Assembly (NCBI GenBank): GCA_013176395.1
Contig: JABMLP010000004.1
Location: 1,302,001 to 1,366,000 of the forward strand
Direction: 5' to 3'
DNA length: 64,000 nt
Source of the DNA: Venturia oleaginea
Taxonomy: Eukaryota > Ascomycota > Dothideomycetes > Venturiales > Venturiaceae
In this document: piece by piece, positions 3,678 through 62,078 of the stretch
Position numbering within the stretch: position 1 is the stretch's first letter
Layout: every line of letters starts with the position of its first letter
Program-made: the position numbers and the translations under genes
Notes under the pieces: model-generated
What the model saw: only the letters and a program-made list of their open reading frames with translations
What the model was told of the DNA's origin: nothing
The model's database searches: none

Positions 3678-4384
3678 GGTGTCGGATTGTCGGATTGGGA
3701 AGTTGAAGGATTAGGTATTAAGAATACGAAGGACTGGCCTTGCTTTCGAAATGAGGGATTTTGAATGTAGAGATTAGGGAGGGAACGATGCATCGGTCAG
3801 AGTTGGAAGGAAAGGTTGAAGATAAGAAAAGATAACGTTGATGAGAAGGAAGCAGGAGGGAGTAGAGGGGGGAGAAGTTAAGTAAATGTTCATTTCTATT
3901 GTTTATTGTGACTTCTCTGGTCCTTATGTCTTTTTCGCAATTGTTGAGAGTTTGGGAGAGATGTATCGTGAGTTATTCTTTCTGCTATTCATGGAGGACA
4001 ATAGCAATGGAGGGTGAGATGTTTGTGGTATTTCATGTGTGGCTTGAATGCGGATTTGCGCCACAATGGTGTTGAGTTTTGGGAAGATAGTAGAATACGA
4101 AAAAGTCCATTGTAAGATACTTTGAGGCCGTAAATGGAAAGAAAGAGATCGAGAGCAGAGCAATGTCGTCTTGCAAGCTGTATGCATCAACACCATCAAC
4201 ACAGCAACTTTCTGTCAACTGGAAATGATTTGCGAAACTGGAAAATCGATTTCAAATTCAAAAAACGTGGTATCATGTCAATTATCGTACAAGCGTTCCA
4301 TCAATACATGTGTTTTTCCCTCTATAGCAAAACTCCGAGCTGATGCAAGTGGCGAAATTGGATGAGGCGACAGAATTGGCAAAT
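3678..4384. other. Intergenic: promoter of 574-aa gene and 3' side of alcohol dehydrogenase
   Basis: Both neighbours are on the minus strand, so this 0.7 kb holds the upstream region of the 574-aa gene and the transcript end of the dehydrogenase gene. Only short open frames of poor composition are present. I see no convincing TATA box for the downstream gene. Confidence 0.5.
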
Positions 4385-5374
4385 CTAGTTGACGAGAACA
4401 CCACGGTATCTCATATGTCCATCCTCGAGGTGCTTGAATGCTTTCTCAATTCCTTCAACGTCCATGGGGAATTCCTCGATCAACGGTTTGATTCCGTGCT
4501 GGCCAGCGAAAGCCAACATTTCCTTGTGGATTGCTCGTGGAGCGACGACACTGCCTTGGACTCTCAATGCGTACATGAGTAGACCCATTTGAGGGATGGC
4601 AAAGTCGATGTCGGCGACGGTGAGAGGGTAGATGGTTCCTCCTGGAGCCATGACAGGCATGTAGAGGTTCCAGTCTGGGTTGAAGGATGTCGTAACGAGC
4701 AAGTGGTCGATTTGCTTCGCGACCTTGATTTCTTTGAGGCCCTTGGTGGCGTAGAACTCCGAAGCGCCAAGCTTCAAGGCTTCTTCTTTCTTGCTATCAG
4801 TTGAAGAAAAGACGACAACTTCGCAACCCATCTTGGCAGCGAATTGGATAGCGAGATGTCCCAATCCACCAATACCCAAAACACCGACACGGTCAGTGCT
4901 GCGGACATTGTACATGCTCAAGACGTTCCACACGGTAGCACCTCCACACATCAATGGAGCAGCGTGTTTGTTCTCGATGTTGTCGGGGATCTTGAAAAGA
5001 AAGTTCTCATTCCAGATGGCAGCAGTTGCCATACTACCCTGGTCAAGGTCGCAGCCTCCAAACATTTGTCGTTCAGCGCAGAGGGTTTCAGTTCCGGTTA
5101 AACATTGCTTGCAGTGTCCGCAAGAGTTGTGCTGGTATCCCCATCCGACTCTGTCGCCCACTTTGAATAGAGATGCATTCTCGCCGAGTTGCTTGACGAT
5201 GCCGGCTCCTTCGTGTCCGAGTCCCATGTCAGCGCCCTTGTAATGGGCATCTGTGCCGCAAAGTCCGGAGTGAGTAACTTCGACCAGGACTTCGTGAGGT
5301 CCTACGGATTTGGTTGTGGTGGCCTTTTGAATGGCACCGCCTTTAGAGCCCTTGAAAACTGTGAAGTCGACCAT
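4385..5374 (-). CDS. Zinc-dependent NADP(H)-type alcohol dehydrogenase (CAD/ADH6-like MDR)
   Basis: A 329-aa medium-chain dehydrogenase/reductase, near the usual length for the cinnamyl-alcohol-dehydrogenase/ADH6 branch, which interconverts aldehydes and primary alcohols in the cytosol. Catalytic-zinc ligands are visible as Cys39 (GLCGTD), His54-Glu55 (GHEGAG) and Cys143 (LMCGGAT). The structural-zinc set is Cys85, Cys88, Cys91 and Cys99. The Rossmann motif GIGGLG lies at 167-172, and the following strand ends in Ser-Ser-Thr rather than Asp, which favours NADP over NAD. The C-terminus (RYRGVLVN) is typical of the family. All key residues are present and no intron is needed, so the gene looks functional. 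The start at 5374 is the first in-frame ATG, about 125 nt below a TATA-like element. The substrate cannot be told from sequence. Confidence 0.93.
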   Translation of the reverse strand: MVDFTVFKGSKGGAIQKATTTKSVGPHEVLVEVTHSGLCGTDAHYKGADMGLGHEGAGIVKQLGENASLFKVGDRVGWGYQHNSCGHCKQCLTGTETLCAERQMFGGCDLDQGSMATAAIWNENFLFKIPDNIENKHAAPLMCGGATVWNVLSMYNVRSTDRVGVLGIGGLGHLAIQFAAKMGCEVVVFSSTDSKKEEALKLGASEFYATKGLKEIKVAKQIDHLLVTTSFNPDWNLYMPVMAPGGTIYPLTVADIDFAIPQMGLLMYALRVQGSVVAPRAIHKEMLAFAGQHGIKPLIEEFPMDVEGIEKAFKHLEDGHMRYRGVLVN

Positions 5375-5497
5375 TTTAAATGAAGTTATGTTTGAGGTTG
5401 GTAAAGTGGAGGGTTTGAGTACGGTGATTGAAGTTTGTTAGAGAATGAGTTGTTGATTTTTGGAAGATAACTTCTCAAAGCGCACGTCTACGATCCC

Positions 5498-5504: not shown

Positions 5505-6934
5505 CCTTTTATTCCGTAACGGAAGTACCGTCATCAATATAGCGTCATTACTCCGGATAGCTCTGCGTAAAAGTGGATAGGCTCGTTCACAGTGGCCTTC
5601 GATAAGGCTCCATCGAAAGCGGCAGTTTTCATCCTGAAACGGCAATCTGCGTAGATTGAGTTGTTATGCACGTCACCAAAGAAGATTTTGATCCAGGATG
5701 GAGATGGAGGTGGATGTGGCTTGGTCAGGAATTGGCCAGCGTTATCCCGAAGTCGAACCGCCGTCTCTCGATTATTCCCTAGTGCCCTTCCTTTATCTGA
5801 ACAAGAACAAGCTTTCACGAATTTCCTAGTCGGAAAAGCTTCTTCATGTCGTAAAGCTCAGATGCGCGGTTGCTTGGTAACATCTCGATTTGAAAGGATG
5901 GACATTTGCCTGCCAGGATATGCCAGAACCACCAGAGAAAAGATCTCAAAGAGTCAGGAGAAATCTCGCATTTCGGTCGGCGACTCCGGCAGATCACAAA
6001 GCTATGCCTTATCGAGAGAATTTAACTGCAAGAAGAACACAGATTGTTCATCCTGCGCTCCATCAAGTGGCTAGATCTCCATATTTCCTTAGTAATTCAG
6101 GAGCATGATGTTGGATCCGTTTGATTCCGCCTCTCGTAGAGAATATCCACTGATTTCGCCTCTTTCTTTCACCTATTATGTATTTGCTGCGTTGGTAATC
6201 ACCATCTGGACGGTAGGGTTACTACTTTGGAAAAGTGACAGGCAAATCTTACTTATATTCATCACGCTGGTGGTTCTGATACTATTCACGTTGCTTCTGA
6301 AACCAAACTTCCTAGACAGACTTCCCACGTACACAGATCCTTGAACTTTCCCATCAATTCGTTCTTCAATTAGACGATTCCCGGACACCCGACCGTGGCA
6401 TGTCTAAATTTGAGACTTCAAATAGAGTTGCACGCCTGAACAGAATTCCTCCAGCAGATGCCAGGAAGGTTGAAGATCGAGAGTTTAGTCACACACAACC
6501 CCTTGGGAAACGGGCCAAATTTCATGAATCCAAAATTAATCGCATCTCTTCTTTTCACTGGTTTGGTCGTGAAAATCATGTGAAACTTGCTCGCAATATT
6601 ATATCCGTTCACGCACACATTCGACCAAGGTTTTGCCAGTAAATGCGATAGAGATTCGTATATTCTGAAGTGCTATAGCTGAGATCTGATAATTACTGCA
6701 ATATGGCCAAAAAATGGAGATCGAATACCACGGAATCGCGAACATTCTAATAAATTTTCTGGGCAAGTAAAAAACAGCTTCACCTGATCTCCAATGAAAT
6801 GGAAACAGGATGCATCGACCGTATCAAGCTAAGGAACAGACCTTAAAGGAGAGAGTCTGATGTAGATGTAACATCCTCGAAGATCTACCGGAAGTGATAA
6901 ATTCCGGTGATCAGAATCTCAATTTCGAGCAAAC
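5505..6934. other. Intergenic with one small membrane-type open frame (6105-6344, +)
   Basis: Mostly without supported genes. The frame 6105-6344 (+, 79 codons) encodes two hydrophobic stretches (YYVFAALVITIWTVGLLLW and QILLIFITLVVLILFTLL) separated by a KSDRQ turn, ending KPNFLDRL. This could be a small two-span membrane protein or the last exon of a longer gene, but no upstream exon is evident. The rest, including 6345-6934, shows nothing. Confidence 0.3.
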
Positions 6935-6939
6935 AAAAA
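6935..6939 (-). terminator. Pol III T-run terminator for tRNA-Pro
   Basis: Five A on the plus strand, that is TTTTT on the tRNA strand, about 40 nt past the tRNA 3' end. It is the first T-run of at least five downstream and so the likely Pol III stop, though the distance is on the long side. Confidence 0.4.
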
Positions 6940-6979
6940 GGGAGCACCTCCGTACACATGGAAGTGGAGAAGAGTGAAG

Positions 6980-7065
6980 GGCTCCACCGGGATTCGAACG
7001 CGGGGCCTCCTGCAGTTTAGACCGAACAACCCAAAGCAGGAATCATACCACTAGACCATAGAGCC
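6980..7065 (-). tRNA. tRNA-Pro (anticodon UGG) with 15-nt intron
   Basis: Read on the minus strand, an acceptor stem GGCTCTA pairs with TGGAGCC. It is followed by a D arm (TGGTCTAGTGGTATGA), an anticodon stem CCTGC/GCAGG and a T arm with TTCGAAT loop. The anticodon loop is TTTGGG...T, giving UGG at positions 34-36, proline. A 15-nt intron (7015-7029) sits between positions 37 and 38, the canonical nuclear site. The encoded mature tRNA is 71 nt before CCA addition. One oddity is in the T stem: position 52 is C opposite C62 where G-C is standard. That base also lies in the B-box promoter, so expression or stability may be reduced. Confidence 0.9.
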
Positions 7066-7975
7066 GCATTACACTTGATGGCTACGAAGTCGTTAATCTA
7101 GGTATATAATTCATCAATAAACTGGTGCATCTGTGGTGGTTTGAGTTTCGCGGTTGTGTCCGCATCTTTCCGAATCAAAGCGCTTCAGAATACTTACAAG
7201 TCATGTTCAGAAACCCTTAAAATCGAGTGTTCTACAGCCGGCTTGCAATTATGAGCCGTGAACTGTTCTGGGGATCTGCCTATGATTTCTATATGTTGGG
7301 AACTATTGTCACGAATCACTATTTCAGGTAGAGGTTGGGCTTCACGTGCTTCACATGGAATTTAAGGTTCGGCAATCGATCTCGGTAAGATCTCTTGGCA
7401 TTCAGCACCTCCTATTTCAGATCTCAGGATGTTAATCTTCGCACTATCATGAACGCAAGACCAATTTCTTGGGTCTGCTCACGTTCGACTAGGAAGGGAC
7501 ATGTCGCATTCTAAGAACAAAAAGAATACTTGCAGAGAACAGGGGTCGAAATTGCAGCAGCCGCTGTATTCACGCAGACCGCAATGCTCTACCCATCAAT
7601 CAAGCATCGGCTCAATGTTGGATTGCGACAGCAGCACATCCTTCGAACATGCCCAGCCAGCCAAGCTCAAAACGCCAGTACTCCTAGCAGAGAGCGACGA
7701 AGACCTACCATAACACACTTCAGCAGCCAACTGCTTTGGTCCCACTATACTCGACGCATACCGGACGACACCCCTCGTACACTGCTACGGCTGTGCTTCA
7801 GTCTGTGAGGAAGGAGTTTGTGCTTCCCTACAGTAGAGGTTTCCAAATGGAGCGACGATCTGTTTCACCTCTCATCCACTTAAACTCTCTTCAAGTTTCG
7901 AGTCTCAGTCAAGTTCAAATACATTGAGCAAGTGCTCTTGACCGCTCAATGTTTAGCGACGTCTTTCTTGCCGAT
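7066..7975. other. No supported gene
   Basis: Upstream flank of the tRNA, then the 3' side of the repeat-precursor gene. The open frames at 7501-7927 (+) are under 95 codons, overlap one another and have no recognisable domain. Confidence 0.4.
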
Positions 7976-8320
7976 TTAGGCACACGGCTCCCTCTTTTTA
8001 ACGTCGCTTTCGACGTAGGCATATGGCTCTCTTTTCTCGACGGCCCTGTCGACGTAGGCATACGGCTCTCTCTTCTCAACATCCCTCTCGACATAAGCAT
8101 AAGCCTCCCTCTTGTCGACATCCTTCTCGCCAATGCTGCCAATTGCCTCCTTCTCACCGACGGCTGAATCGCGTTTGGCATAAATGGTGGAATCGATTTC
8201 ATAAGGACCGCTGGCGACAGCAGCACGCTCGGCAATGGCGCTGGTTTCTTTGATGCAAATCGGAGTCCCCATGACCATTCCGACAGCTACTGCTGCAACA
8301 AGAAAGGACTTGGCGAGCAT
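7976..8320 (-). CDS. Kexin-processed repeat secretory precursor (putative dikaritin-type RiPP precursor)
   Basis: A 114-aa precursor. Residues 1-18 (MLAKSFLVAAVAVGMVMG) form a clear signal peptide, followed by a leader to about residue 50. Lys-Arg dibasic sites fall at 49-50, 70-71, 83-84, 96-97 and 109-110. Between the last four are three 13-residue repeats: EAYAYVERDVEKR, EPYAYVDRAVEKR and EPYAYVESDVKKR. A fourth starts EPCA and stops. Signal peptide plus Kex2-delimited repeats with an invariant core is the architecture of KEP proteins, including alpha-type pheromones and the UstA/PhomA-type precursors of dikaritins. The tyrosine-rich core (YAYV) and a UstYa-like gene divergently placed 1.2 kb away favour the dikaritin reading; core chemistry is inference. 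I chose ATG 8320 over an in-frame upstream ATG at 8479 because a TATAAAA box lies between them. The core has no Cys-rich pheromone look. Confidence 0.8.
   Translation of the reverse strand: MLAKSFLVAAVAVGMVMGTPICIKETSAIAERAAVASGPYEIDSTIYAKRDSAVGEKEAIGSIGEKDVDKREAYAYVERDVEKREPYAYVDRAVEKREPYAYVESDVKKREPCA
7979..8107 (-). repeat. 39-bp tandem repeats encoding the Kex2-delimited cores
   Basis: Three complete in-frame 39-bp units plus a partial fourth make up the 3' end of the precursor gene. In the fourth, the second core tyrosine codon TAC is replaced by TAA, which ends the protein. The first Tyr is TGT (Cys), so the last unit looks like a mutated copy of the same core. Confidence 0.85.
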
Positions 8321-8443
8321 GGTGTTAACTGAGGTGGGATCTTGGTGTGTTGCTTGTGCGAGCTTGGACTGATATGATGACTTTGATGAAAATGTCAGTA
8401 GATTCTGTTTGATGGCTACGAGGATGTGGAGTTTAAGGCTCAA

Positions 8444-8450
8444 TTTTATA
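8444..8450 (-). promoter_or_regulatory. TATA box of the repeat-precursor gene
   Basis: TATAAAA on the minus strand, 124 nt upstream of the chosen ATG at 8320. It is the best core-promoter match near this gene and decides the start codon, since the alternative ATG at 8479 would lie upstream of the box. Confidence 0.55.
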
Positions 8451-8479
8451 AGAAGATCTGAATGCAGAGAAAGCATCAT

Positions 8480-9484
8480 GCTATGAGATGGTTACCTCAC
8501 CCGTTCATTTGATCCGCCGCTGCTGAGCGCAAGGTCAGCCCCTGAGCAACATAGATCACGAACTACGAGCTCGCCATTTGTCACAAATGCAGCCCTCCCG
8601 TCAAAAATGGCAGAACTTCCACTCATGAGAGCAAGGTCGCTGACGACATACTGTGGTGCTCATGTAGTGCTCGAGACATTAATGAACCTAAAGCATCCCT
8701 TGATTAATATACGAGATTTTCAATAAAGCCATACTCTCTATGGTAGCTTGCAAACCCCTTGCGAGACTTTGAGTCGCATCCACGAGAACACCCACGAGTG
8801 ACCGCATGCAGGTCAGGGGAATAGTCTCCTGATTTCAGCATCGGATCGCCGATGCTCAAGAAGTTCGTCCTATGAAATGTTTCGACATATCAGCTGAACC
8901 ACTTGAGTAATAGCTTCCATTTCGCACAGAATCAGATGCTCCCTCTAAGACAAAGAGATGCTCATCACTAGTTGATTCTCGATAAACTAGAGAGCCCACT
9001 GTCTCCATGAAGACACGAGGGGTCTAAACGCCAGCCACGGACTAAGCCAGAGACCAAGTAGCAAAAATCGAACAGTACAAAAGTGCTTATGGTAAGAGTG
9101 TTCACGTCCATCATACGGTGAGCAGTTAGGCTTGCAGTGTGTCTTCAACAGTCCATGGAATGTACAACCAGGCCCAAAGGGCAGAATTTCTATCCACTCA
9201 ATGCAGATCGTCTCTTCCATCCTATCTCATGGTTCGACGTGCTAAAGAATTCAGGCGAATTCGTGTGCTCGCGACATATAGACCCAGGCCATTGGTGAAA
9301 GAATAAATAGCAACCAAGGCGAGAAGCGGGGTAGTCGTGCTTTCCCTTCAGCAGTTCATGTGGGTTATTTCAGACGACTGAAATCGCAAAAAGACTCGCA
9401 GTCTCGGCAGTCGATTGCATCGCCTACAATTTGTTTTACACTGGCGACTTCATCGATAAAGCCAACAGTGTACTCTTAAAACGA
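8480..9484. other. Divergent intergenic region between repeat precursor and UstYa-like remnant
   Basis: About 1 kb with no supported gene. The longest frame, 8987-9220 (-), is Cys/Trp-rich but has no HxxHC or other recognisable motif. If the flanking genes formed a cluster this would be their shared promoter region. Confidence 0.4.
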
Positions 9485-10337
9485 ATGCCCACAGCTTTGA
9501 AGAGGAAGAGTCTCTCAAACCGAGATACGAACAGCTTGGGCAGTCTAACAAGCAATCCAAGACATTAAAATTGCTCTTATCTGCCAACGTATGCCTACTC
9601 CTCGCTATTACAATCACACTCATCATTCTCGCAGTGGACATTGCCCAATCGAATAATACACCCGAATGCTTCGACGGTATATCTCATCTTCACCCAGATC
9701 TCAACCATTGGTTCTCTAACCGAAACTATACGGAAAAGTTACTCAACCCCCCAATTCAATGGGAGCAAAAAACATTTAACACTTCCATCGATGTCGCCAA
9801 AGGTTCCACATCAGACTGGTTCGATCCAGCCAGCCCCGAAGTCTCCGCAGACTGGTTTTCCAAACTCGAGATTGGACACATCGCCATCAGCGATGCGGAA
9901 GCACTCTGCCTTCCAACGGAAACGGCCCGTGACGAAAAGGGATATATAGGTGTTCTTGAAGTATTCCATCAACTCTATTGCTTGGTAAGTCCGTATCTCT
10001 TCAACCTTACCTTGCCTTCCCGAGACCCCAACTCATATACATACATGTGACGAAACTTACGCCATAGAATCTAGAATCATATCCGCCAACGCTTTTACAA
10101 CCTCACCACTTTCCATCAACACAGCGAGTCAACCCATCTCACTTCTTCCCACGATAAACATTGCTTTAATTATCTATGGTAGACTCTGTTGCTCACGTTG
10201 ACGTTGGTGTTTTGTCTTTGGCATGGAATGAAGAGTTGAAGGATTATATTACTGGTTTTGCGGTTGTGAAACGATGTCAGAATTTTGAGGTTGTGAAAGA
10301 GTGGGTGAAGGGGGTGGGGGGGGGGGGGGCGTTGTAG
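9485..10337 (+). pseudogene. UstYa/DUF3328-like oxidase, decayed
   Basis: UstYa-family proteins are membrane-anchored copper-type oxidases that cross-link or cyclise core peptides of fungal RiPPs. The reading frame shows a membrane anchor (LLLAITITLIILAV), the signature IGHIAISDAEALCLP, then YIGVLEVFHQLYC and, after a 90-nt phase-0 intron (9985-10074, GTAAGT...CTAG), NHIRQRFYNL and HDKHCFNYLW. These correspond to the two HxxHC motifs; the first has become HxxYC. Lesions: the ATG at 9485 is out of frame with the body, TAG at 10180 replaces the expected Gln after YLW, and a one-base shift near 10191 precedes HVDVGVLSLAWNEELK. The frame then reaches a G14 run and stops at 10337. Family assignment is from motif recognition; loss of function is well supported. 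Confidence 0.82.
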
Positions 10338-10979
10338 ATTTAGTTGATAGAGAATAGGGATAGAAGAGCGATATTGATGATTTTCTAGCGTTGAGATTTC
10401 TAGGAATCCATCCATGTCAATGTTGAATTAAGAGAATGCTATTTCTAATTAACGAAACGCGGCCGAGTTGTTAACTTCTCCTCCTTCTCCTGCCAACTGC
10501 TCCTCCTTCTTCTCCTGTCAACTTCTTCTTCTCCTCCCGTCGTCCTTGACTACTTTTAAATTCGAATGCAGTGCATTCCACACCATAAGGTTTGCTGTCG
10601 TGGATATTTGGCTTGACGTCATAGCTACAACAAGCCGATTTCTACAATTACCATTCTATTAATATTCTACTAGTTTTGATATTCGTTATAGCTAGGGGAT
10701 TAACTTACGCACCACCATTTAACTCTAGAATCGCATTGACCCCACGTCTTGCCCTCTTCATTGATGCATTCTTTTTGGTCGTTGTAACTCTTTACTAACA
10801 TTAGCTTAAGAGAGAGAGAGAGGGTAGAGAGACGTATATAGCAAGTTCTAATGTCTCTGTAGCAGCATTTTTTCGCGAGAGTACACTATATGTTGTATAT
10901 ATTAGTATACAGATCGTACAAAGTCATACAGGAAGAAGGGGTTCTTACGTATTCTGATGAGGCAACAAGGATAGGATAG
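10338..10979. other. No gene; CT-rich tract and GA microsatellite
   Basis: A pyrimidine-rich stretch (about 10475-10545) and a short (GA)n run near 10811-10822 are the only structure visible. The first bases after 10337 match the sequence after the second UstYa fragment near 11770, so this is the old 3' flank of the gene. Confidence 0.45.
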
Positions 10980-11155
10980 TATTACGGGACGGTAGCTGGA
11001 AAGACGCAGCATACTCGTAGCCAAAGATTGTTTAGATTCAGTTAAGGAGTGAAGGTATCTACGAACAGAGAACCTCAATGAGGTTCTGTCTCTCTATTAG
11101 GCTCAATCAGGCTTAGGCTCTTAGCCTATACCAACCATGGGCCATGCCCATAACA
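10980..11155 (-). mobile_element. Solo LTR of Gypsy-1
   Basis: A 176-bp copy of the Gypsy-1 LTR in minus orientation, running from TATTACGGGAC to CCCATAACA on the plus strand. It is flanked on both sides by the 5-bp target duplication GATAG (10975-10979 and 11156-11160). An intact duplication around a single LTR indicates insertion followed by LTR-LTR recombination. It differs from the full-length copies at a few bases. Confidence 0.92.
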
Positions 11156-11671
11156 GATAGAGGTGGAGGATAGTAGAAAAGATGATGGTAAGCTTCACGG
11201 TCGTTAGATTTGGATTGAAGTGTTCTGCGCCTGACGTTCTTCGTCGCCGTCCACCATACTTATATTACGTTCGCGGCGGGTTTATAAATATCTATCTAGC
11301 CTGTAAGATTGTACCACAGTAGTAACTATCGCAAGGATCCGCAAGGATATTTTTACTATCCGATATCGGGCTTTCTGATCCTTGCAAATTGGCAGCTAAG
11401 GCTGTTTTTACTCCAAATTACAGCAGAACGGGAGGGTGTCTCTTGAAAGACATTCACTTCTGACCGTGAAAGTTTTGGTGGACGATCTCCCGAGGGCCTA
11501 AAATCCGTTGAAAATTCCTGGCCAGACGCGTGTCAGATAAGGGATAAAGAGGATACGAGATACCTTTATAATATTGTAATCAAATCTAGAGATTTCATAA
11601 CATACCTTGTAGATAAGAAATTTAAGAAGCGTAATCGACAGGTCGACGATAAACGACGTGTTTAATTAGCA
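11156..11671. other. No supported gene
   Basis: AT-leaning sequence without long open frames, TIRs or LTR similarity that I can see. It separates the solo LTR from the second UstYa fragment. Confidence 0.4.
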
Positions 11672-11782
11672 AAGGATTATATTGCTGATTTCGTGGTTGT
11701 AAAACAATATAGGAATTTTGAGTTTTTGACCTCGGGAAGGAGTAGGCGCAGGCGAAGGGCAGGGAGGTGTAGATTTAGTTGA
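11672..11782 (+). pseudogene. 3' fragment of a second UstYa/DUF3328 paralogue
   Basis: Reads KDYIADFVVVKQYRNFEF, aligning with KDYITGFAVVKRCQNFE near the end of the first remnant; about four fifths of the bases match over 51 nt. The similarity extends past the coding end (GTAGATTTAGTTGAT...GAGAAT at 11768 and 10333), so it reflects duplication of a segment including 3' flank. Everything upstream of KDYI is missing and replaced by unrelated sequence. Too short to be functional. Confidence 0.65.
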
Positions 11783-12471
11783 TGGAGAATGGGGAATGGG
11801 AATGAGTGAGATAGATAAGATGGAAGATTTGCGTATTGTGCTTTCGAGGTTATTGAGGACATTTGGAACATGCAATCGAGTCTGAGAGCTACTATGTAGT
11901 AAGACAGCAGCAGATGAAGAATTTTACATTCATTGAAAAAACAATGGAAAGGGAGACAAGGAAATTAGGGCTGATAGTGCGCCGCTCGCCGCAGAAATGA
12001 AAGGAGACATCAGCATTATTTGAGAATTTTATGCAAGGCGTGCAAGGCGGTCGCTGAACTCCTCTTCACCCACCCAGGATCGGTTTTTGGCCCTTACATC
12101 GATCTCGGCCATGCACAAATAAATACTAGACGAGACTGGGCTGAATGCAGATTCTGGCAAAGATCGGACAAATAATGCGGGCGTTTCATTAATTCAGTGG
12201 CCTTACCAGTGTCTTGAAATCGGAGGCAGCGTTAGTTTAAGAGTCGCTTAACTCTAGATCAATATCGATAAATTTGGCAATTCCAAAGAAGAGGATCACC
12301 AGAATTTGATCGATATCGATCTCGAGTTGTGCGTGTTTATTTCGGTTTAGGTGTGCCATGAGCGGCACCGATTTGATGAAGCCACTGTGCGCTTAAATTA
12401 CTTCGAATGCTGATATAAGCCTGATCGACGATGCATCCTGGGCTAACGTAAAATTGTTGCGGTTGCTTTTG
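11783..12471. other. No supported gene
   Basis: Short frames only. It lies between the UstYa fragment and the 3' end of the decarboxylase-like pseudogene. Confidence 0.4.
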
Positions 12472-13949
12472 CTAATAAACCAAACATATCCCAGTACACC
12501 GAAGTCCAAACGCCAACCCAAATGTCAGTACATCGTCCTCCAAAACAGCCAAAGCAGAACAAACAGGAACATTGATATGTCCAAATGGTGCTTGTGGAAA
12601 AAATGTCAAGTTAACTTCCAGTCGGAAAATCAGGCAATGAGTCGATCCATCATAATGGAAACTGCCAATTTCATCACCTTTCGTCACATTCTGCCCCACC
12701 TTCACAAAAGCTTCGCAGCTGCTCACCTCGGCCATGAGTCCAATCCTCGGATCGTCCGCTTGTATGAAAATGAGAAGACGGGTCGCCTTCTGGCAAAGGT
12801 AGGCTTGCAAGTTATTCGGTGCAGCTGGATCGGGATTTGGTTTCCCTGCCGAGTCGAGGTTGGCGAATCCTTCAAAGGCATTTTGGAGGAAATATGTGCC
12901 TGATATGTGGAGGATCTTGACGATTTTGCCGGTGACTGGTGCGTGCCAGCGGTGATAACTGAGGGCGGGAGGAAAGCTTGGTAGACACCGCCACCGTCGA
13001 ATTGTCTTGCTAGAGGATCGTTGTCGAGCATTTCGAGGAGAGAGTATGGTTGACCTTTCAAATCGAAGCTATCGTGCTATTTCACCTTGGATGCTATTCG
13101 GTATGGGCTTGATTCGCATGCGTTGCAGATTATGCGGGCATCGTCTGGAGAAGCCGTGGGACGGACTCCGTCTCTCCATCTTCGGATGAAGAAGTCGTCC
13201 CAAGATTTGTAACCGTATGAGGGCAAGGTTGGGTCACAAATGAATGCTTGAGTAAAGGTCGTAGGCTTCGATGGTGTAGCATCCGTAACAACTCTTGCCA
13301 TAGCATCCAATACTTCTTCGCACAGCCATCCCTTGGGATTGTTGGTAAAGACTGGGGTGGAATCTCTCGAGTCTAAAAAGGTCGACCATGATCTAAGGAT
13401 ATTTTGAATATGGTGGTTGATGTCTGCTCGAGAAAAGAGATGGAGTCCAGCCACTGTAGCCATCAGATAAGCAAGGACTGCATTGAAGGGGAATCCAACC
13501 AATTCTTTCTGGCCGTCCGAAGTGTATTGCCAGATTGGAGCAGTCTTCATGAGATCGTCGAAGACGCGGAGCATCGATTGGTAATCGAGTACGATTAGCT
13601 GGTCGGTTGGATCTAAACTCTCCATGGACGATGTTTCTTCGAACATCTCATGAAACAGCTGAAAGACTTTCCAGTCACTTTCAATAAAGGTCTTGAATGC
13701 TTCTAGAGCTGGATGCAGTCGGGTGTGCTTTTCTCCTCTGTCACTAGTGGGCCATGGAGCCATGCTTCAAATCGACGTTTTGGAGTGGTGATAAAGATGA
13801 GAAGCAGGTGGGCAATACTCGCCATTGTGCTGGATTAGCGTGCGGGATTGGCCGGAAAGAAGTGGTATAAATGTATTGATTTCCAAAATCAACATGTCTG
13901 GATTTGAAAGGCATTTTAAAGTTCGAGGCATGCTCTGTGCAGTTATCAC
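12472..13949 (-). pseudogene. PsiD-like / phosphatidylserine-decarboxylase-family enzyme, decayed
   Basis: The PsiD-like branch of the PLP-independent, pyruvoyl-type decarboxylases acts on aromatic amino acids or related substrates. The N-terminal half reads RLHPALEAFKTFIESD, FHEMFEE, VGFPFNAVL, YGYKSWDDFFIRRW and GVRPTASPDDARII, then KGQPYSLLEML. After a frameshift it continues YHRWHAPVTGKIV, ARRALIF-like and GLMAEVSSCEAFVKVGQ, and finally the catalytic-region GSTHCLIFR. Breaks: TGA at 13767-13769, TAG at 13077-13079, a one-base frameshift near 12985, and an apparent loss of several residues between GLM and AEVSSCE. Both stops fit C-to-T change of CGA and CAG codons. Family identity is confident, the exact substrate class is not, and it is not functional as written. 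Confidence 0.82.
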
Positions 13950-37140: not shown

Positions 37141-37141
37141 T

Positions 37142-37317
37142 TATTACGGGACGGTAGCTGGAAAGACGCAGCATACTCGTAGCCAAAGATTGTTTAGATT
37201 CAGTTAAGGAGTGAAGGTATCTACAAACAGAGAACCTCAATGAGGTTCTTTCTCTATACTAGGCTCAATCAGGCTTAGGCTCTTAGCCTATACCAACCAT
37301 GGGCCATGCCCATAACA
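37142..37317 (-). repeat. 3' LTR of Gypsy-1 (minus copy)
   Basis: 176 bp, reading TGTTATGGGC...CCGTAATA on the element strand. It abuts the truncated LINE endonuclease. Confidence 0.95.
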
Positions 37318-37329
37318 TTACCCCCCTCC

Positions 37330-39354
37330 TTACCGGGTGTGCAGGACTAAAGAGGGTGTGGTAGGTGGGATAATCAAACAGACAAACGCCATACATCGCT
37401 TCTGCCAGCTTGTAGCAGATTCGAAGGCGCTGGCCACCGCTACTCGGTTTCTTCGGGCCCCTGTTTGAGCTCCTATATCTTCGCCCACACCGTCGCCCTT
37501 GCCATACTCTGCCTCGAAGCGGTCTAAGTCCTCGACTTCTGTGAATAATGAACGTGGCTGCCAATCGGGATCTGCATAGCCTTTCCATTTGATTAATAAC
37601 TGACGAACCCAGCCTCGCCCAACCCGTTTCTTCTCTGCGCGAAGTATACGTTCTACTTCAAACTCAGCCTCTGTTTCTTCGGTTTGAGGCACTAATGGTG
37701 GCGGCTGGGTATCATCGGATTCTTGTGAGGGCAGTGTGTCGGTTGCGGCTCGGCGGAGTAGGTCAACGTGGAAACGGTTATGGATACCACTTGGCAGGTC
37801 AGCCAGCTCGTATACCATCGGGGAGATCTGGTTCTCGACAGTGTATTTGGCTTGCGTCCACGACAGTTTCTTTGATAGCTGCGGAGTATTGATATTCCTA
37901 AGGTTCAACCAGACTTTGTCGCCCTTTTTTAACGTTTCGGCAGCTTGACGTGACCTGTTGGCGTCGTTCTCCATCTTCTGCTGGGACCAGGCCATCGCTG
38001 CCTGTGCATATTCTTGTGCCTCTTCTATTCGTTGCACAAAGGTCTCGGCATCGGCTGTTGGTGAGTTACTGGGTGAGATTCGTTGTACTTTCTGGATTGG
38101 TTCCGCATGGTAGCCGTGGGTTAGATAGAATGGACTCATCCCTGTGACTGAAGAGTCACGATTGTTCAGTGCTAACATAGCCGTAGGTAGTAGCGTTGGC
38201 CAGTCTAGTTGGGAGTATGCGATGAAGGCGCGGAGATAGCGTAGAACTTCCTGGTTCATACGCTCGGTCGCGCCATCGGTCTGTGGATGAAAGGCTGTAG
38301 AGAGTCTCTGCTCAATCTTTGTAAGTTCGCAAAGCTTCCTCCAAAAACGACCTGTCCAATTGCTGCCTCTGTCCGACGTCAATGCCATGGGAAATCCGTG
38401 GTAGCGATAGTGGCATTGTAAGAACCTTTTCGCGCACTCTTTGGCGCTCATTGTAGTCATAGCCTCCAACGTAACACTTTTGAGGAGGCGATCTGTGATA
38501 ACCATGAGGTATTTTGGGCCGTTTTCCTCCGCGGGCAAATCAGTCATGAAATCGATTGATAGCTCGCTGTGGAAGCGGGCCGGGATTGGAAGTGGTTTCA
38601 GAAGACCTCGCTTCTTATCACGCCATATTCCTGTTCTCCCACATACGTCGCAATTACGTACAAACTGCCGGACTGTCTTGTATTGTTGGGGCCAAAAGAA
38701 ACTTCTGGATAGAATCGCAAGCGTGCTATCTCTCCCTGGGTGTCCAGTAACATGGGAATCGTGAGTTTGTTGGACCAGCGTTGTTCGCAGCGGTTCCCAA
38801 TCTGGTACCCATAGGATCCCTCTTCTCGTGACCGCGCCGTGGTCGTCTACTTCGCATTCGGGTAGCTGTACCGACAACTTGAGCTCTGGAGGAAAGGAAC
38901 GTTCGCCAGTAACTATAGCCGTATGAATAGCTTCGTAGGATTGGTCCTCTGCTATTGCGCGATCCCAGAGAAGTTGTAACTCTGGTTTCTCGAAAAGATC
39001 GCATCCTTTTGCAACTGACCGGTTTTGACCGTACCTAGTAGTGGACCGGTGTTGACCGTTTTCGGCAGTCAGCTGGTGTCGACCGTCCAGTCCAGTATTT
39101 TGCTGGGGCTCCCGTATAACGTCCCATGTACCATTGGATGTATTCGGTGTATTGACTGGGCAGATAAGGGCTTGTATTGCGATTGTTTCGGTCGTCCTCT
39201 CGGAAAGAGGAGGAAGCCATTCGTCCTTGATCAACTGGGCCACTCGCCCTTGTAGTCTCTCGTCGTTCTTGTCATGTGGCATATCTTGATGTCTTCTTGA
39301 TAGTGCGTCTGGTCTTTGCGCTAGTTTTCCGGCGCGAAATTCCAGCTGGAATTG
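37330..39354 (-). CDS. Gypsy-1 integrase and chromodomain (downstream of in-frame stop)
   Basis: Continues the pol frame after TAA at 39355-39357. It holds an HHCC zinc-binding domain (HDSHVTGHPGR...NCDVCGRTG) and the integrase core with its acidic triad (LSIDFMTDLP, LTSDRGSNW, TERMNQEVLRYLR). A GPY-type segment (KGDKVWLNLRNIN) follows. A chromodomain (EFEVERILRAEKKRVGRGWV...IKWKGYADPDWQP) completes it. Chromodomain integrases direct insertion toward marked chromatin. All catalytic residues are present; only the upstream stop separates it from RT. Confidence 0.92.
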   Translation of the reverse strand, partial: QFQLEFRAGKLAQRPDALSRRHQDMPHDKNDERLQGRVAQLIKDEWLPPLSERTTETIAIQALICPVNTPNTSNGTWDVIREPQQNTGLDGRHQLTAENGQHRSTTRYGQNRSVAKGCDLFEKPELQLLWDRAIAEDQSYEAIHTAIVTGERSFPPELKLSVQLPECEVDDHGAVTRRGILWVPDWEPLRTTLVQQTHDSHVTGHPGRDSTLAILSRSFFWPQQYKTVRQFVRNCDVCGRTGIWRDKKRGLLKPLPIPARFHSELSIDFMTDLPAEENGPKYLMVITDRLLKSVTLEAMTTMSAKECAKRFLQCHYRYHGFPMALTSDRGSNWTGRFWRKLCELTKIEQRLSTAFHPQTDGATERMNQEVLRYLRAFIAYSQLDWPTLLPTAMLALNNRDSSVTGMSPFYLTHGYHAEPIQKVQRISPSNSPTADAETFVQRIEEAQEYAQAAMAWSQQKMENDANRSRQAAETLKKGDKVWLNLRNINTPQLSKKLSWTQAKYTVENQISPMVYELADLPSGIHNRFHVDLLRRAATDTLPSQESDDTQPPPLVPQTEETEAEFEVERILRAEKKRVGRGWVRQLLIKWKGYADPDWQPRSLFTEVEDLDRFEAEYGKGDGVGEDIGAQTGARRNRVAVASAFESATSWQKRCMAFVCLIIPPTTPSLVLHTR

Positions 39355-41406
39355 TTACTCAGATAGAATTAGCGACCATCTTGCTTGTCTCTCTGACAAA
39401 CGCTGCGCTGTCATAAAGTAGCGGAGATTCTTGTGATCGGTAAGGACTTTGAAAGGTGCTGCAACACTGCGTAGTTCTCCTCTCCAGTGTTCAATGGACT
39501 TGATTACTGCCAGTAATTCTTTATCGTGGATCTCGTAGTTACATTCAGCCGCAGTGAGCTTGCGGGAGAAGTATGCTACTGGTCGTAGTTTTCCTTTCAT
39601 ATCCTTCTGCGACAACGTGCCTCCCAGCGCGTAGCCAGAGCAGTCGCACTCGAGTACCGTATCCAGGTCTGGATTCCAGTGAGCCAGTATTGGGGCGGAG
39701 ATGAATAGCTCCTTCAAGACTTGAAAGGCGTTCTCATGTTCTTTGTTCCAGACAAAAGCGACGGCCTTCCGTGTTAACTTGATTAAGGGGTCGGAGAGCT
39801 CTGAGAAGTTGTCGATGAAGTCTCGGTAGAAATTTGCAAAGCCTAGGAAGGAGCGTACGCCTGTGACATTGACTGGAGCCTCCCATTCTTTAATCGCGGC
39901 AACTTTCTCTGGGTCGACTTTGATCCCTTCTCCTGCAGTGATAATGAACCCCAGATATTTGACCTCCTGAACAGCAAACTCGCACTTGCTTAAGTCTAGC
40001 CGAAGTCCAGCAGTCTTGAGCTTGGCAAGAATTTGGTTAACCTTAACCATGTGATCCAGATAGTCGCCGTCGCTCCATATCAAGACATCGTCCATGTAGG
40101 CTGAACAGCAGATATCTAGGGATTCCCGTAGGACTCCGTTGATGTATCGTTGAAAGCTCGCGGGTGCGCCAGCTAGTCCGAAGGGGGTAACTAGCCATTC
40201 GAATAGTCCAAATCGAGTGCGAAAAGCCGTTTTCCACTCATCGCCGTGCTTGATGCGGAGCCGATGAAATGCCGCTCTGACGTCAAGTTTGGTGTACCAA
40301 CGCGCTGTTGCTAGATTTCGTAGGGTTTCTCGGATTAGTGGCAATGGGTAGCGGTCCGATCGAGTGATTCGATTCAGTGCCCGATAGTCTACACACATCC
40401 GAATGCCTCCACCTGGTTTCCTTACAAATAAGACTGGGGCTGCCGCTGGTGAGTTGCTGGCGCGTATCCAGCCCTTGTCCATATAGTCCGAAAGTGTTTT
40501 TCGTAGGACTAATAGCTCTTCCCTCGACATGCCGTATAATGGGCCCCAAGGAACTTCTGCCTCGCGACCTTGTTCATCTCGTATCAATTCGATAACGTGA
40601 TCGCGACCCTCTTGATGGGGCGCGATCTCTCCGTCTTCGTCGTCGAGAAAGGCATCAGCATGCTCTGCTATTTCTTCTGGTATCTCTTGTCGCATTTCTT
40701 CCTCAGTCTTTCTCTGTTTTCTTTCTGCTAACTTGCTTAGGGCCTTGTTGATATCCGACATCGAGATAGCCAGCACTTGTGTACCATCCGGTCCATCTCT
40801 TCTCAACCGTCGCTGGGCCCTTCCAACAATAGCTGCAAATACAGATCCTGACACTAGACAAGCCGCCCGCACGTGAGCGAGCCGGTCTCGCGCTTTGGTG
40901 TTCTGTTCTAGCCACCCCTTTTCTCTTACTGTGATGCGCTGGGATCCTTGACCAATAAGCAGCTTTCTCTTAGCTGCTATATATCGCACCCAGTTTCTCT
41001 CTGCCCATGCCTTGCCTAGGATAATAGGGAAGCTCAATCCTTTCACTATATACCCATAGACTCGCTCTGCTCGACCATCAATGTCGATCGTAGCGTAGGT
41101 CATGTGCGTAATACGGAGGTCTTCTCCGTTCTCGTGGCTCTCTTTAGCCAGTGCCAATTGTTTGGTGTCAATTGGGATGCGCGGTAGACGATGTGTTTGG
41201 ACACTCTTCTCGCTGAAAGCAGCATAAGGGAGGCAGCCGTTATCAAAGAAGGATTCGGTGAAAGAAGTTCCGTTGATCAAGGTATCTATCAAGAAGGGTG
41301 TACTTTCCATCCTATCCTTTGCTGCTTTGATTTCTCTTATGCCTGGTAGCTTTGTAATGTCTTCGCCATGTACATCTACTTCAGACCCTCGTGCGCGACG
41401 ATGCAC
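39355..41406 (-). CDS. Gypsy-1 pol: protease-RT-RNase H (ends at in-frame TAA)
   Basis: An aspartic protease-like region reads SFFDNGCLPYAAF, with D-N-G where D-S/T-G is usual. RT follows (GWIRASNSPAAAPVLFVRK, CVDYRALNRIT, TPFGLAGAPASFQ and catalytic YMDDVLIWS), then RNase H (LECDCSGYALGG, NYEIHDKELLAV). The frame ends in TAA right after RWSLILSE, where relatives have Tyr or Phe, and continues in the same frame as integrase. It lies one frame back from gag, so a -1 shift or reinitiation would be needed. Confidence 0.92.
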   Translation of the reverse strand: MHRRARGSEVDVHGEDITKLPGIREIKAAKDRMESTPFLIDTLINGTSFTESFFDNGCLPYAAFSEKSVQTHRLPRIPIDTKQLALAKESHENGEDLRITHMTYATIDIDGRAERVYGYIVKGLSFPIILGKAWAERNWVRYIAAKRKLLIGQGSQRITVREKGWLEQNTKARDRLAHVRAACLVSGSVFAAIVGRAQRRLRRDGPDGTQVLAISMSDINKALSKLAERKQRKTEEEMRQEIPEEIAEHADAFLDDEDGEIAPHQEGRDHVIELIRDEQGREAEVPWGPLYGMSREELLVLRKTLSDYMDKGWIRASNSPAAAPVLFVRKPGGGIRMCVDYRALNRITRSDRYPLPLIRETLRNLATARWYTKLDVRAAFHRLRIKHGDEWKTAFRTRFGLFEWLVTPFGLAGAPASFQRYINGVLRESLDICCSAYMDDVLIWSDGDYLDHMVKVNQILAKLKTAGLRLDLSKCEFAVQEVKYLGFIITAGEGIKVDPEKVAAIKEWEAPVNVTGVRSFLGFANFYRDFIDNFSELSDPLIKLTRKAVAFVWNKEHENAFQVLKELFISAPILAHWNPDLDTVLECDCSGYALGGTLSQKDMKGKLRPVAYFSRKLTAAECNYEIHDKELLAVIKSIEHWRGELRSVAAPFKVLTDHKNLRYFMTAQRLSERQARWSLILSE

Positions 41407-41414
41407 AAGGGTAG

Positions 41415-42518
41415 CTAGTTTTCCGACTCTGATGAGGCTTCCTGTAGGGAGTCATCGGTATGCTGTGTGATTACCGCAGTGACCTGAGTCTTTGGACGTG
41501 TTGCTGGTCGGAATTCGCATACGTTCGGGTGGTGCTTGGGCTTCTTACAGCGCCCGCATTTGCCCGCTTGTATAAGTGCCAAGAACTCTGTTTGGGATCG
41601 CCATTTCGCTCTAGGTCGTCGGTCCTTCTTCGCATCCTTTCCGAGTGTATCGACCCGAGCTATCAGTGCTGCGATCTGCGCTGAAAGGGCGTTGATGCCA
41701 GTCATTTCGACATCGCCTTCTGCGTCACGACTGACTGTTTGGGGTGATTGTGGCCTCCCTCGAGTCGTTGGCGTCTCCTTATCCGTACTTGGATAGCGGC
41801 GTTGGTGGAATAGAGCCTCTGTCTTCGTCGCGAAGTACTGTACATCTTTTACGTAAGTGTCGTAGTCGTCCCTGGACAATCGCACTGATTTCAAGGTCTG
41901 TTGGAGGGAGTAGTTGAGCGCGTTGTTCATGATAGTGATCTTTGAGGCTCTTTGCGGCGCTAGGGATCCAGCTTGCGATGTCAGTTGTTCGAACTGCTGG
42001 CGGAAGTCTTCGAACGGTTGTCTGCTGCCTTGGCTAATCTTGTTCAGCTCGTCGAGAGCTTTAGCTTCCGCTTCATGATCTAAGAACTTGTCGTCCATAT
42101 GCTTGATAAAGGACTCGGGTTCGTAGTTGTCATGTTGCTCTCCATTGCTTAGCCATTGGATGACGCGTTGTTGTTTCTCTGTCGGAAGCCCGTTGAAGAT
42201 GTTCGCGCATATTCCTTGATTGCTTCCAAGCTTCCCATTTTCAACAGTGATTTTTGTCTTGATCTGCCATCTGAACAGCGTGTAGTTGTCTCTTTTCCCG
42301 TCCCATTTAGGCCATGCAATAGCTTTTGCACCGGTGTTCCCATCAACACTGACTGCGGTCAGAGCTGCCACCAATTGTTGTACGGTGTCAGGCGAATTTG
42401 CTCGAGCCATTGAGAGTTTGTCGATTCCTTGCGTAATGCTCGCGATTGGGTCGTCGTCGGTAGTAGGGGTGTAGGTTGTAGGAGTCGATAGGGTACTGTT
42501 GCTACGCATCAAGTACAC
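41415..42518 (-). CDS. Gypsy-1 gag
   Basis: A 367-aa nucleocapsid/capsid protein. The capsid-like central part (FRWQIKTKITVENGK, HMDDKFLDHEAEAKALDEL) resembles the retrotransposon gag fold, and a CCHC knuckle near residue 320 (CGRCKKPKHHPNVC, CX2CX4HX4C) binds RNA. It ends SSESEN and TAG just before pol, which is in the -1 frame. Confidence 0.9.
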   Translation of the reverse strand: MYLMRSNSTLSTPTTYTPTTDDDPIASITQGIDKLSMARANSPDTVQQLVAALTAVSVDGNTGAKAIAWPKWDGKRDNYTLFRWQIKTKITVENGKLGSNQGICANIFNGLPTEKQQRVIQWLSNGEQHDNYEPESFIKHMDDKFLDHEAEAKALDELNKISQGSRQPFEDFRQQFEQLTSQAGSLAPQRASKITIMNNALNYSLQQTLKSVRLSRDDYDTYVKDVQYFATKTEALFHQRRYPSTDKETPTTRGRPQSPQTVSRDAEGDVEMTGINALSAQIAALIARVDTLGKDAKKDRRPRAKWRSQTEFLALIQAGKCGRCKKPKHHPNVCEFRPATRPKTQVTAVITQHTDDSLQEASSESEN

Positions 42519-42543
42519 CTAGGTTTGTAAAGAACTGAATCTA

Positions 42544-42719
42544 TATTACGGGACGGTAGCTGGAAAGACGCAGCATACTCGTAGCCAAAGATTGTTTAGA
42601 TTCAGTTAAAGAGTGAAGGTATCTACAAACAGAGAACCTCAATGAGGTTCTTTCTCTATACTAGGCTCAATCAGGCTTAGGCTCTTAGCCTATACCAACC
42701 ATGGGCCATGCCCATAACA
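42544..42719 (-). repeat. 5' LTR of Gypsy-1 (minus copy)
   Basis: 176 bp, one base different from its partner at 37142-37317. Confidence 0.95.
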
Positions 42720-42861
42720 GTATAACTATTTAAAATCGTTAGCAGGTCAGCTCTGTTAATAAGTACAGAGCCCTAGAGATGCCAAGGAGCTCTTTGGAAG
42801 GGATTTCTGATGCTGGTGCAATATAACGATGCCCAAGACGTCGTCGAGGCCAGCGGTGTAC

Positions 42862-53216: not shown

Positions 53217-53556
53217 ATGCCTCCGAAGAAGGATATCACCGCGTCGGTTCCTATCAACTTATCCCTACCACCGGGTCACTCTACTCGCTCCTCTCGTACC
53301 CGATCCCCCTCTATTGTCTTCGAGACCCAGAGGTCATCTTCACGGTCGCGATCAACAATGCCCAGGCCGCTGAGGCTCGCGCCGTAGAGGCTCACAGGCT
53401 AAGGATGGACCGCGAAAAGGAGGAGCGCGACCTCCAGATGCAGGTCAAACGCGAAGAAGCGGCGGCGCGCCTTGCAAAAATTGGGGAGGGCTCTTTACTA
53501 GAACTACCGCATGGCACCAGTCGTCCGGGGGCGACTGAGCCGGATAACAGTACGGA
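53217..53556 (+). pseudogene. Element D gag remnant (two deletions)
   Basis: Begins MPPKKDITASVPINLSLPPG, identical to copy 2 at 62267. It lacks 97 bp (copy 2 positions 62398-62494), bounded by GGTC on both sides, which shifts the frame. It then jumps from 62702 to about 63644 of copy 2, losing the whole zinc-finger half of gag and the gag/RT junction. Non-functional. Confidence 0.88.
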
Positions 53557-55077: not shown

Positions 55078-56283
55078 ACTATTGTTGAACCGTCCGATCG
55101 TTCGGCCTTTATTAACCCTAAAGAGATGGAGGCCGTTGCCGTTGCCGTTGCATTCCTCCGTTGGGGACCATCTCTATAGGCATATCCGGCCGACGCCCTC
55201 TCTCGAGTCTAGTTTTCGATCGTATCGTCTAGCTGCCTCCGATGGGGCTCACCTTTTTTCGATCTCAGTTCCGCTGAACTATTGGTGAACCGTCCGATCG
55301 TTCGGCGTTTATCAACCCTAAAGAGATGGAGGCCGTTGCCGTTGCCGTTGCATTCCTCCGTTGGGGACCATCTCTATAGGTACATCCGGCCGACGCCGTC
55401 TCTCGAGTCTAGTTTCGATCGTATCGTCTAGCTCTGCCTCCGATGGGGCTCACCGCTTTCGATCTTATAGTTCCGTTGAACTATTGGTGAACCGTCCGAT
55501 CGTTCGGCGTTTATCAACCCTAAAGAGATGGAGGCCGTTGCCGTTGCCGTTGCATTCCTCCGTTGGGGACCATCTCTATAGGTACATCCGGCCGACGCCC
55601 TCTCTCGAGTCTAGTTTCGATCGTATCGTCTAGCTCTGCCTCCGATGGGGCTCACCGTTTTCGATCTCACAGTTCCGCTGAACTATTGGTGAACCGTCCG
55701 ATCGTTCGGCGTTTATCAACCCTAAAGAGATGGAGGCCGTTGCCGTTGCCGTTGCATTCCTCCGTTGGGGACCATCTCTATAGGTACATCTGGCCGACGC
55801 CCTCGCGAGTCTAGTTTCGATCGTATCGTCTAGCTCTGCCTCCGATGGGGCTCACCGTTTTCGATCTCACAGTTCCGCTGAACTATTGGTGAACCGTCCG
55901 ATCGTTCGGCGTTTATCAACCCTAAAGAGATGGAGGCCGTTGCCGTTGCCGTTGCATTCCTCCGTTGGGGACCATCTCTATAGGTACATCCGGCCGACGC
56001 CGTCTCTCGAGTCTAGTTTCGATCGTATCGTCTAGCTCTGCCTCCGATGGGGCTCACCGCTTTCGATCTTACAGTTCCGTTGAACTATTGTTGAGCCGTC
56101 CGATCGTTCGGCGTTTATCAACCCTAAGAGATGGAGGCCGTTGCCGTTGCCGTTGCATTCCTCCGTTGGGGACCATCTCTATAGGTACATCTGGCCGACG
56201 CCCTCGCGAGTCTAGTTTCGATCGTATCGTCTGGCTCTGCCTCCGATGGGGCTCTCCGCTATCGTCCTTACAGTTCCGTTGAA
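55075..56283. repeat. Six ~201-bp tandem units derived from the element's own RNase H region
   Basis: The marker GAACCGTCCGATCG recurs at about 55087, 55287, 55489, 55691, 55891 and 56093, a period of 200-202 bp. Each unit equals RT-RNase H bases 54722-54825 joined to about 54990-55075, with about 165 bp between them removed and an added GCCGTT expansion. Frames in the units are broken (TCTATAGG), so the array is not coding. Confidence 0.92.
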
Positions 56284-56419
56284 TTCTTGCTATCCCGGGG
56301 ATTGCAACTTTGGGCTTGGCGCGCTGTTCGTGGCAGCCGTTCTTTGCAGGCTCATCGGCTTAAGCGCCATGCTACTCTGCTATCGCCGACGTTCGGCAGA
56401 TACCCTGGTCGGACTCCGG

Positions 56420-56852: not shown

Positions 56853-56877
56853 TAGATTCAGTTCTTTACAAACCTAG

Positions 56878-57981: not shown

Positions 57982-57989
57982 CTACCCTT

Positions 57990-62066: not shown

Positions 62067-62078
62067 GGAGGGGGGTAA

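What the first reader, a model, noticed from the sequence alone, without database searches (positions are those of the whole stretch)
7976..11782. Remnant of a dikaritin-type (UstYa-dependent) RiPP locus with an apparently intact precursor
A signal-peptide precursor with Kex2-delimited YAYV repeats lies divergently beside a UstYa/DUF3328 gene and a fragment of a second one. Known dikaritin systems (ustiloxin, phomopsin, asperipin) pair a Kex2-processed, Tyr-core precursor with one or more UstYa-type oxidases. Here both oxidases are broken while the precursor frame is open, suggesting a pathway lost in this strain that may be whole in relatives. The YAYV core is not one I know as a described product.
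Basis: partly seen in the sequence, partly recalled or inferred. Interest (0 to 1): 0.88.

Follow-up and report, generated by a model that had tools for sequence, protein, structure and literature searches.

The report
Decayed fungal cyclic-peptide gene cluster
A fungus related to the scab fungi keeps an open gene for a repeating secreted peptide (core YAYV) next to broken copies of the enzyme gene that normally ties such peptides into rings, so a known kind of natural-product pathway seems to have been lost here.

Summary
At 7976-8320 (-) lies an open 114-codon frame with a signal-like N-terminus, three 13-residue Kex2-delimited units (KRExYAYV + spacer) and a truncated fourth unit. Head-to-head lies a UstYa/DUF3328 gene (9475-10310, +) that passes Pfam's cut-off but is broken: no in-frame ATG, His to Tyr in the first HxxHC motif, a stop at 10180-10182, and its C-terminus in another frame. 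A second UstYa tail remains at 11672-11749. The one homologue found is an intact V. effusa protein; other matches to it in this genome are only 29-42% identical.

Of 14 other UstYa loci in this assembly, 3 carry Kex2-repeat frames by a strict scan and 6 by a looser one. V. inaequalis is published to have nine dikaritin clusters, so the kind is known. New are this member, its YAYV/YGYV core (not met in my literature searches; supplements unread) and its decay. A neighbouring PsiD/PSD-like gene is broken too.

Reading: a dikaritin cluster that lost its cyclase(s). Not shown: a working cluster with this precursor in a relative, expression, or a product. Most novel open reading: the precursor is still used, linear or modified in trans.

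The parts
7976..8320 (-). Dikaritin-type precursor frame, 114 aa: signal-like N-terminus, leader, three YAYV units and one truncated unit
   Evidence: homologues P0001 and P0002
8267..8320 (-). Putative signal peptide MLAKSFLVAAVAVGMVMG
   Evidence: read by eye (hydrophobic core, small residue at -1); MLAKSFLV invariant in both homologues; no signal-peptide program was available
8075..8113 (-). Unit 1 KREAYAYVERDVE
8036..8074 (-). Unit 2 KREPYAYVDRAVE
7997..8035 (-). Unit 3 KREPYAYVESDVK
7976..7996 (-). Truncated unit 4 KREPCA followed by the stop codon
9475..9984 (+). UstYa pseudogene, first exon: membrane helix (by eye), domain, first motif reads HQLYC instead of HQLHC; no ATG in its frame upstream of the helix
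9985..10074 (+). Probable intron (gtaagt...ctag) right after HQLYCL
   Evidence: read by eye; homology resumes at about 10075
10075..10182 (+). UstYa pseudogene, second exon up to the stop at 10180-10182; holds the second motif HDKHC
10188..10310 (+). UstYa pseudogene, C-terminal part, in a different frame
10980..11155 (.). 176-nt solo LTR of the Ty3-type element also seen at 37142-42722 and 56675-62254, flanked by 5-bp direct repeats GATAG
   Evidence: flanking repeats read
11672..11795 (+). Tail of a second UstYa copy (coding homology to about 11749) plus duplicated 3' flank
12550..13766 (-). Neighbouring PsiD/PSD-like decarboxylase gene, also broken (in-frame stop and a change of frame); membership in the cluster not shown
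   Evidence: its middle piece alone gave no Pfam match
4388..5437 (-). Open zinc-type alcohol dehydrogenase gene on the other flank; not known to belong to the cluster

Best explanation
This is the remnant of a dikaritin (UstYa-dependent RiPP) gene cluster of a Venturia-like fungus. Originally a secreted precursor was cut by Kex2 at KR, and probably trimmed of the EA/EP dipeptide. The YAYV-containing pieces would then have been oxidatively cross-linked through tyrosine by one or two UstYa-type membrane oxidases encoded head-to-head with the precursor. In this strain both oxidase genes look dead, so no cyclised product should come from the cluster's own enzymes. Shown: the frames, repeats, family membership and lesions. 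Inferred: Kex2 cutting, dipeptide trimming, tyrosine cross-linking, and that the precursor was the substrate of these oxidases.
For: PF11807 over cut-off on two pieces of the gene. Clear relative of intact V. effusa FKW77_005690 (P0003): 55% identity for the first exon and 66% for the C-terminal part. In this genome the 9 other places that match P0003 are 29-42% identical, so no close intact copy is held. Precursor homologues keep signal, leader and KREPY: P0001 with KREPYGYV, P0002 with KREPY. Across the three units, the 8 codons of KRExYAYV show 1 nonsynonymous and 4 synonymous variable codons, against 4 and 1 in the 5 spacer codons; 0.05% of 20,000 neutral simulations kept the core as conserved. 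Of 14 other UstYa loci in the genome, 3 (strict) or 6 (looser) carry Kex2-repeat frames. Nine published dikaritin clusters in V. inaequalis (PMC9632046, passages). DUF3328 genes peak at the position next to Kex2-repeat genes, and Tyr is enriched in repeats that have a DUF3328 gene near, 65.6% against 38.2% (PMC7329392, passages).
Against: No genome was seen in which a YAYV-type precursor lies beside an intact UstYa gene. No expression data and no product. 5 of 14 other UstYa loci had no frame in the looser scan within about 5 kb and 2 more only noise-like ones, so UstYa genes also occur without a recognisable precursor. The precursor searches found no V. effusa protein, although V. effusa has the intact oxidase; the gene may be unannotated or absent there. 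No random-region control was obtained.
Confidence: 0.8

Rival explanations
1. The precursor is a live Kex2-repeat protein whose peptides work unmodified (linear, like yeast alpha-factor with KR-EA trimming) or are cross-linked in trans by another UstYa protein of the genome; the loss of the neighbouring oxidase changed the product rather than ending it.
For: Frame open, good ATG context (CACCATG, read), leader and KR sites conserved in homologues, core conserved among units. 14 other UstYa loci exist in the genome. Of 7878 Kex2-repeat genes in a published survey 6120 (78%) have no DUF3328 gene within 15 genes (PMC7329392, passages).
Against: Fourth unit is degenerate. The constraint seen among units is historical and may predate the oxidase loss. 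The other UstYa matches are only 29-42% identical to the lost one's intact relative.
Confidence: 0.15
2. The oxidase only looks broken because of assembly errors.
For: Lesions include a change of frame, and a long G run lies just behind it (10310-10329); the neighbouring decarboxylase is broken too; only one assembly was available.
Against: Four lesions in one gene, among them a His to Tyr change in a motif and a stop, plus a second copy reduced to its tail. The dehydrogenase nearby and long transposon frames in the same window are open.
Confidence: 0.05
3. Chance neighbours: a Kex2-repeat gene and an unrelated UstYa pseudogene.
For: 5 of 14 other UstYa loci show no repeat frame in the looser scan.
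Against: Head-to-head, 1.15 kb between the precursor ATG and the start of the oxidase homology; Tyr-bearing core; the strict scan found no other repeat frame in the window.
Confidence: 0.07

Closest known systems
Dikaritin clusters of Venturia inaequalis (nine reported, including Cin3 in the dikaritin-2 cluster; PMC9632046, passages read)
   Same: DUF3328 gene close to a precursor with N-terminal signal and tandem repeats of at least 10 residues with kexin sites; probably related host group
   Different: Oxidases are broken here. Whether one of the nine has a YAYV-type core is in supplements that I could not read
Ustiloxin, phomopsin and asperipin-2a pathways (cores YVIG/YAIG and YVIP from PMC7329392 passages)
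   Same: Kex2-cut, Tyr-containing repeat precursor paired with DUF3328 (UstYa-type) proteins; YAIG starts with the same YA as YAYV
   Different: No tyrosinase match among the 30 stretches of the window given to Pfam (one search lists 68 frames of 130 aa or more, so not all were scanned); core has a second Tyr; oxidases dead
UstYa-type protein FKW77_005690 of Venturia effusa (P0003)
   Same: The one homologue found for the broken oxidase, 55% and 66% identity by piece
   Different: Both HxxHC motifs and the frame are intact there; its neighbourhood was not readable
Linear Kex2-repeat peptides such as yeast alpha-factor
   Same: KR-EA/EP processing pattern (recalled)

Membership tests
Dikaritin (UstYa-dependent RiPP) cluster | Precursor with N-terminal signal peptide | tested here: inconclusive
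   Hydrophobic residues 1-18 read by eye, MLAKSFLV invariant in both homologues; no signal-peptide program run
Dikaritin (UstYa-dependent RiPP) cluster | Tandem repeats of at least 10 residues separated by kexin sites | tested here: met
   Three 13-residue units, each starting KR, plus a truncated fourth
Dikaritin (UstYa-dependent RiPP) cluster | DUF3328/UstYa gene close to the precursor gene | tested here: met
   PF11807 at 9571-9984 and 10170-10334, 1.15 kb from the precursor ATG
Dikaritin (UstYa-dependent RiPP) cluster | Working oxidase gene | tested here: not met
   No in-frame ATG, motif change, stop, change of frame; second copy only a tail. It is a remnant, not a working cluster
Dikaritin (UstYa-dependent RiPP) cluster | Cyclised peptide product | not testable with these tools
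   needs mass spectrometry
Dikaritin (UstYa-dependent RiPP) cluster | Same precursor-oxidase pair in other genomes | not testable with these tools
   Homologues P0001 and P0002 lie on unnamed contigs of 927 and 2293 nt; V. effusa neighbourhood not held
UstYa/DUF3328 family (Pfam PF11807) | Score over Pfam's gathering cut-off | tested here: met
   48.6 and 26.1 bits on separate pieces, cut-off 25; 63.8 bits
UstYa/DUF3328 family (Pfam PF11807) | Two HxxHC motifs (recalled as characteristic; both present in P0003) | tested here: not met
   First reads HQLYC, second HDKHC is kept; consistent with a dead member

The most novel reading that the evidence does not exclude
The precursor outlived its cyclase: the YAYV repeat protein is still made and used, as a linear secreted peptide or as a substrate of another UstYa protein in trans. 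That would be a natural case of a RiPP turning back into (or switching to) another peptide product after losing its cluster enzyme.
Probability: 0.15. Interest if true: 0.6.

Novelty: new member of a known kind. Interest (0 to 1): 0.36.

Why it matters
It adds a YAYV/YGYV core to the sequence space of fungal cyclic peptides and gives a natural loss-of-cyclase case. In such a case one can ask whether precursor genes decay with their oxidases or are kept for another use. Dikaritins as such, and their presence in Venturia, are already known.

Tried and rejected
Precursor search by single sequence and by profile gave the same two homologues, both unnamed. PDB search with the intact relative gave no match up to E 1. 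Rfam at gathering threshold gave no match in 6500-13000. RIP as the cause of the decay: the composite index over the oxidase (-0.46) is close to that of the whole window (-0.44), and only the stretch between the two copies is RIP-like (0.12), so RIP of the oxidase is not supported. The solo LTR as the cause: it lies between the two copies and outside the homology of the first, so it cannot explain the lesions of the first. A second genomic copy of the locus: none found (only itself plus one chance-level match, E 4.5, 22% identity; only itself). Literature: YAYV with UstYa, 0 papers; 'PYAYV', 'PYGYV', 'KREPY' each 0 in the 9 papers listed of 10 that hold at least two of five terms; 'YAY' absent from the main text of PMC7329392 and PMC12048977; Venturia with dikaritin, 2 papers; Venturia with ustiloxin, 6 papers, listing only; broader searches, listings only. 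PMC5412055: passages on Cin3 only.

Dropped from the repeat counts: in the strict scan, a lysine-rich run in L020 and opposite-frame shadows in L011 and L024; in the looser scan, L017 and L019 as noise-like, L025 because the repeats lie inside the oxidase, and extra frames in L011 and L024.
Full report
What was checked. The window lies at G000:C34:1302001-1366000 of a 46.08-Mb, 61-contig genome. The only homologue found for the oxidase is a Venturia effusa protein (1 hit among 127 candidates), so I take the host to be a member of Venturiales; that is an inference from one protein.

Precursor. The frame 7976-8320 (-) reads MLAKSFLVAAVAVGMVMG..., then a leader with a KR site, then three 13-residue units that begin KRE(A/P)YAYV, then a cut fourth unit KREPCA and the stop. 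A strict scan for dibasic-linked repeats found only this frame in the window and none in 10 shuffled windows. A looser scan also flagged three frames in the transposon-rich part and 3 frames over 10 block-shuffled windows. Among the units, variation in KRExYAYV is mainly synonymous (4 synonymous, 1 nonsynonymous variable codons of 8), whereas in the spacer it is mainly nonsynonymous (1 and 4 of 5). Neutral simulation reached the observed core conservation in 0.05% of 20,000 runs. This is a small sample and speaks of past selection, not of the present.

Homologues. In the 5.8-billion-protein search only two relatives appear at E up to 10: P0001 (88 aa, units KREPYGYVNRDV) and P0002 (89 aa, degenerate units after KREPY). 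Both are from unnamed contigs (927 and 2293 nt), and a profile search found no more. P0001 may be cut by its contig's end. Invariant in all three are the first eight residues, much of the leader (IAxRAAxAS, KRDS) and EKxVxKRExY. No V. effusa protein was among them.

Oxidase. PF11807 (UstYa) is matched on two separate pieces over Pfam's cut-off. Against the intact V. effusa protein P0003 the first exon is 55% and the C-terminal part 66% identical. Lesions, read: no ATG in the frame upstream of the membrane helix; HQLYC for HQLHC; a stop at 10180-10182 after the second motif HDKHC; and the C-terminus in another frame. A probable intron with gt..ag ends (9985-10074) is still recognisable. A search of the whole genome with P0003 gives 11 matches: the two pieces here (61% and 64%) and 9 others at 29-42% identity. 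The second copy survives only as its last coding stretch and 3' flank at 11672-11795. Between the copies sits a 176-nt solo LTR (10980-11155; 97.7% identical to the LTR at 37142-37317 of a Ty3-type element in the window; GATAG on both sides). It is one of many in the genome: one search shows 44 such rows beside the self match, and only 40 of 454 candidates were scored. It did not break the first copy.

Surroundings. A PSDC/PSD-like decarboxylase gene (12550-13766, -) on one side is also broken, with a stop and a change of frame relative to an open paralogue elsewhere in the genome (38% and 49% identity). One of its pieces alone had no Pfam match. A zinc-type alcohol dehydrogenase (4388-5437, -) on the other side is open. 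From about 32 kb on, the frames given to Pfam are mostly transposon frames. Whether the decarboxylase belonged to the cluster is unknown; its shared fate is suggestive only.

Linkage in the same genome. The UstYa search listed 23 matches that I group into the window and 14 other loci. About 10 kb (16 kb for one locus) was read around each. The strict scan finds clear repeat frames at 3 of 14 (L011, L014, L024) and a lysine-rich run, taken as noise, at a fourth (L020). By my reading of the looser scan, 6 of 14 carry Kex2-repeat frames: GMSYY units (L011); GKNSIFF, two copies (L013); YEDIIRDVSDRETGGV units (L014); YAWYNFKR, two copies (L016, about 4 kb from the UstYa match); AEAYQGFNN-like units (L023); and PLFAKV units (L024). 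The two-copy cases are weaker. In 1 of 14 (L025) the repeats lie inside the oxidase itself. In 2 of 14 (L017, L019) the hits look like noise. In 5 of 14 (L015, L018, L020, L021, L022) there was none.

What is known. Passages of PMC9632046 state that nine dikaritin clusters were found in V. inaequalis, including the gene Cin3, with four of ten precursor candidates peaking in mid-late infection. Passages of PMC7329392 give 22% of Kex2-repeat genes with a DUF3328 gene near, at an average of 3.09 genes, and more Tyr in such repeats. I found no paper naming a YAYV core in the searches, which do not reach supplements.

Mechanism. Most likely the precursor entered the secretory path, was cut at KR by Kex2 and was trimmed of EA/EP. 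Its YAYV pieces would have been cross-linked through Tyr by the UstYa proteins. These steps are inferred from the family. With both oxidases dead the cluster should not work by itself. Whether the precursor is a fossil or still in use cannot be decided from sequence; the cut fourth unit leans to decay, the open frame and kept leader to use or recent loss.

Verdict. Observation confirmed, interpretation supported with the caveat that no relative with the whole pair was seen. It is a decayed new member of a known kind; interest is moderate.

Noticed in passing
L025, about 4385-5322 (G000:C2, about 792384-793321): A UstYa gene whose loop between HQLHC and HYLHC is 86 residues long (23-37 in the 10 other frames matched by the same motif pattern in the UstYa loci, not all certainly UstYa) and holds about three 14-residue tandem units ENGEDLFGV + RRKR-like dibasic runs (42-nt period, 2.9 copies). 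It looks like an oxidase carrying its own Kex2-type repeat cassette; no other match in the genome at E up to 1. Gene ends and intron read by eye.
   Followed up: partly
L011:7296-8096, L014:1536-2075, L024:3505-3669 and 3897-4139, L016:9300-9497, L023:6754-6954, L013:1825-2352: Further Kex2-repeat precursor-like frames near UstYa matches in the same genome, with units such as GMSYY, YEDIIRDVSD, PLFAKV, YAWYNF, AYQGFNN and NSIFF.
   Followed up: partly
window 12550-13766 (-): PsiD/PSD-like decarboxylase pseudogene next to the decayed cluster; an open relative lies at G000:C8:508084 region (L026).
   Followed up: yes
window 37141-42721 and 56675-62255: Two copies of a Ty3-type element in inverted orientation, 99.95% identical over 5581 bases, with LTRs of about 179 nt: very recent transposition or duplication.
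   Followed up: partly
window 54987-56289: Tandem array of about 200-nt units, matches between shifted copies 88-95% identical, overlapping the end of a reverse-transcriptase frame (53548-55074).
   Followed up: no
window 6979-7065 (-): tRNA-Ser (gct) about 0.9 kb from the end of the precursor gene.
   Followed up: no
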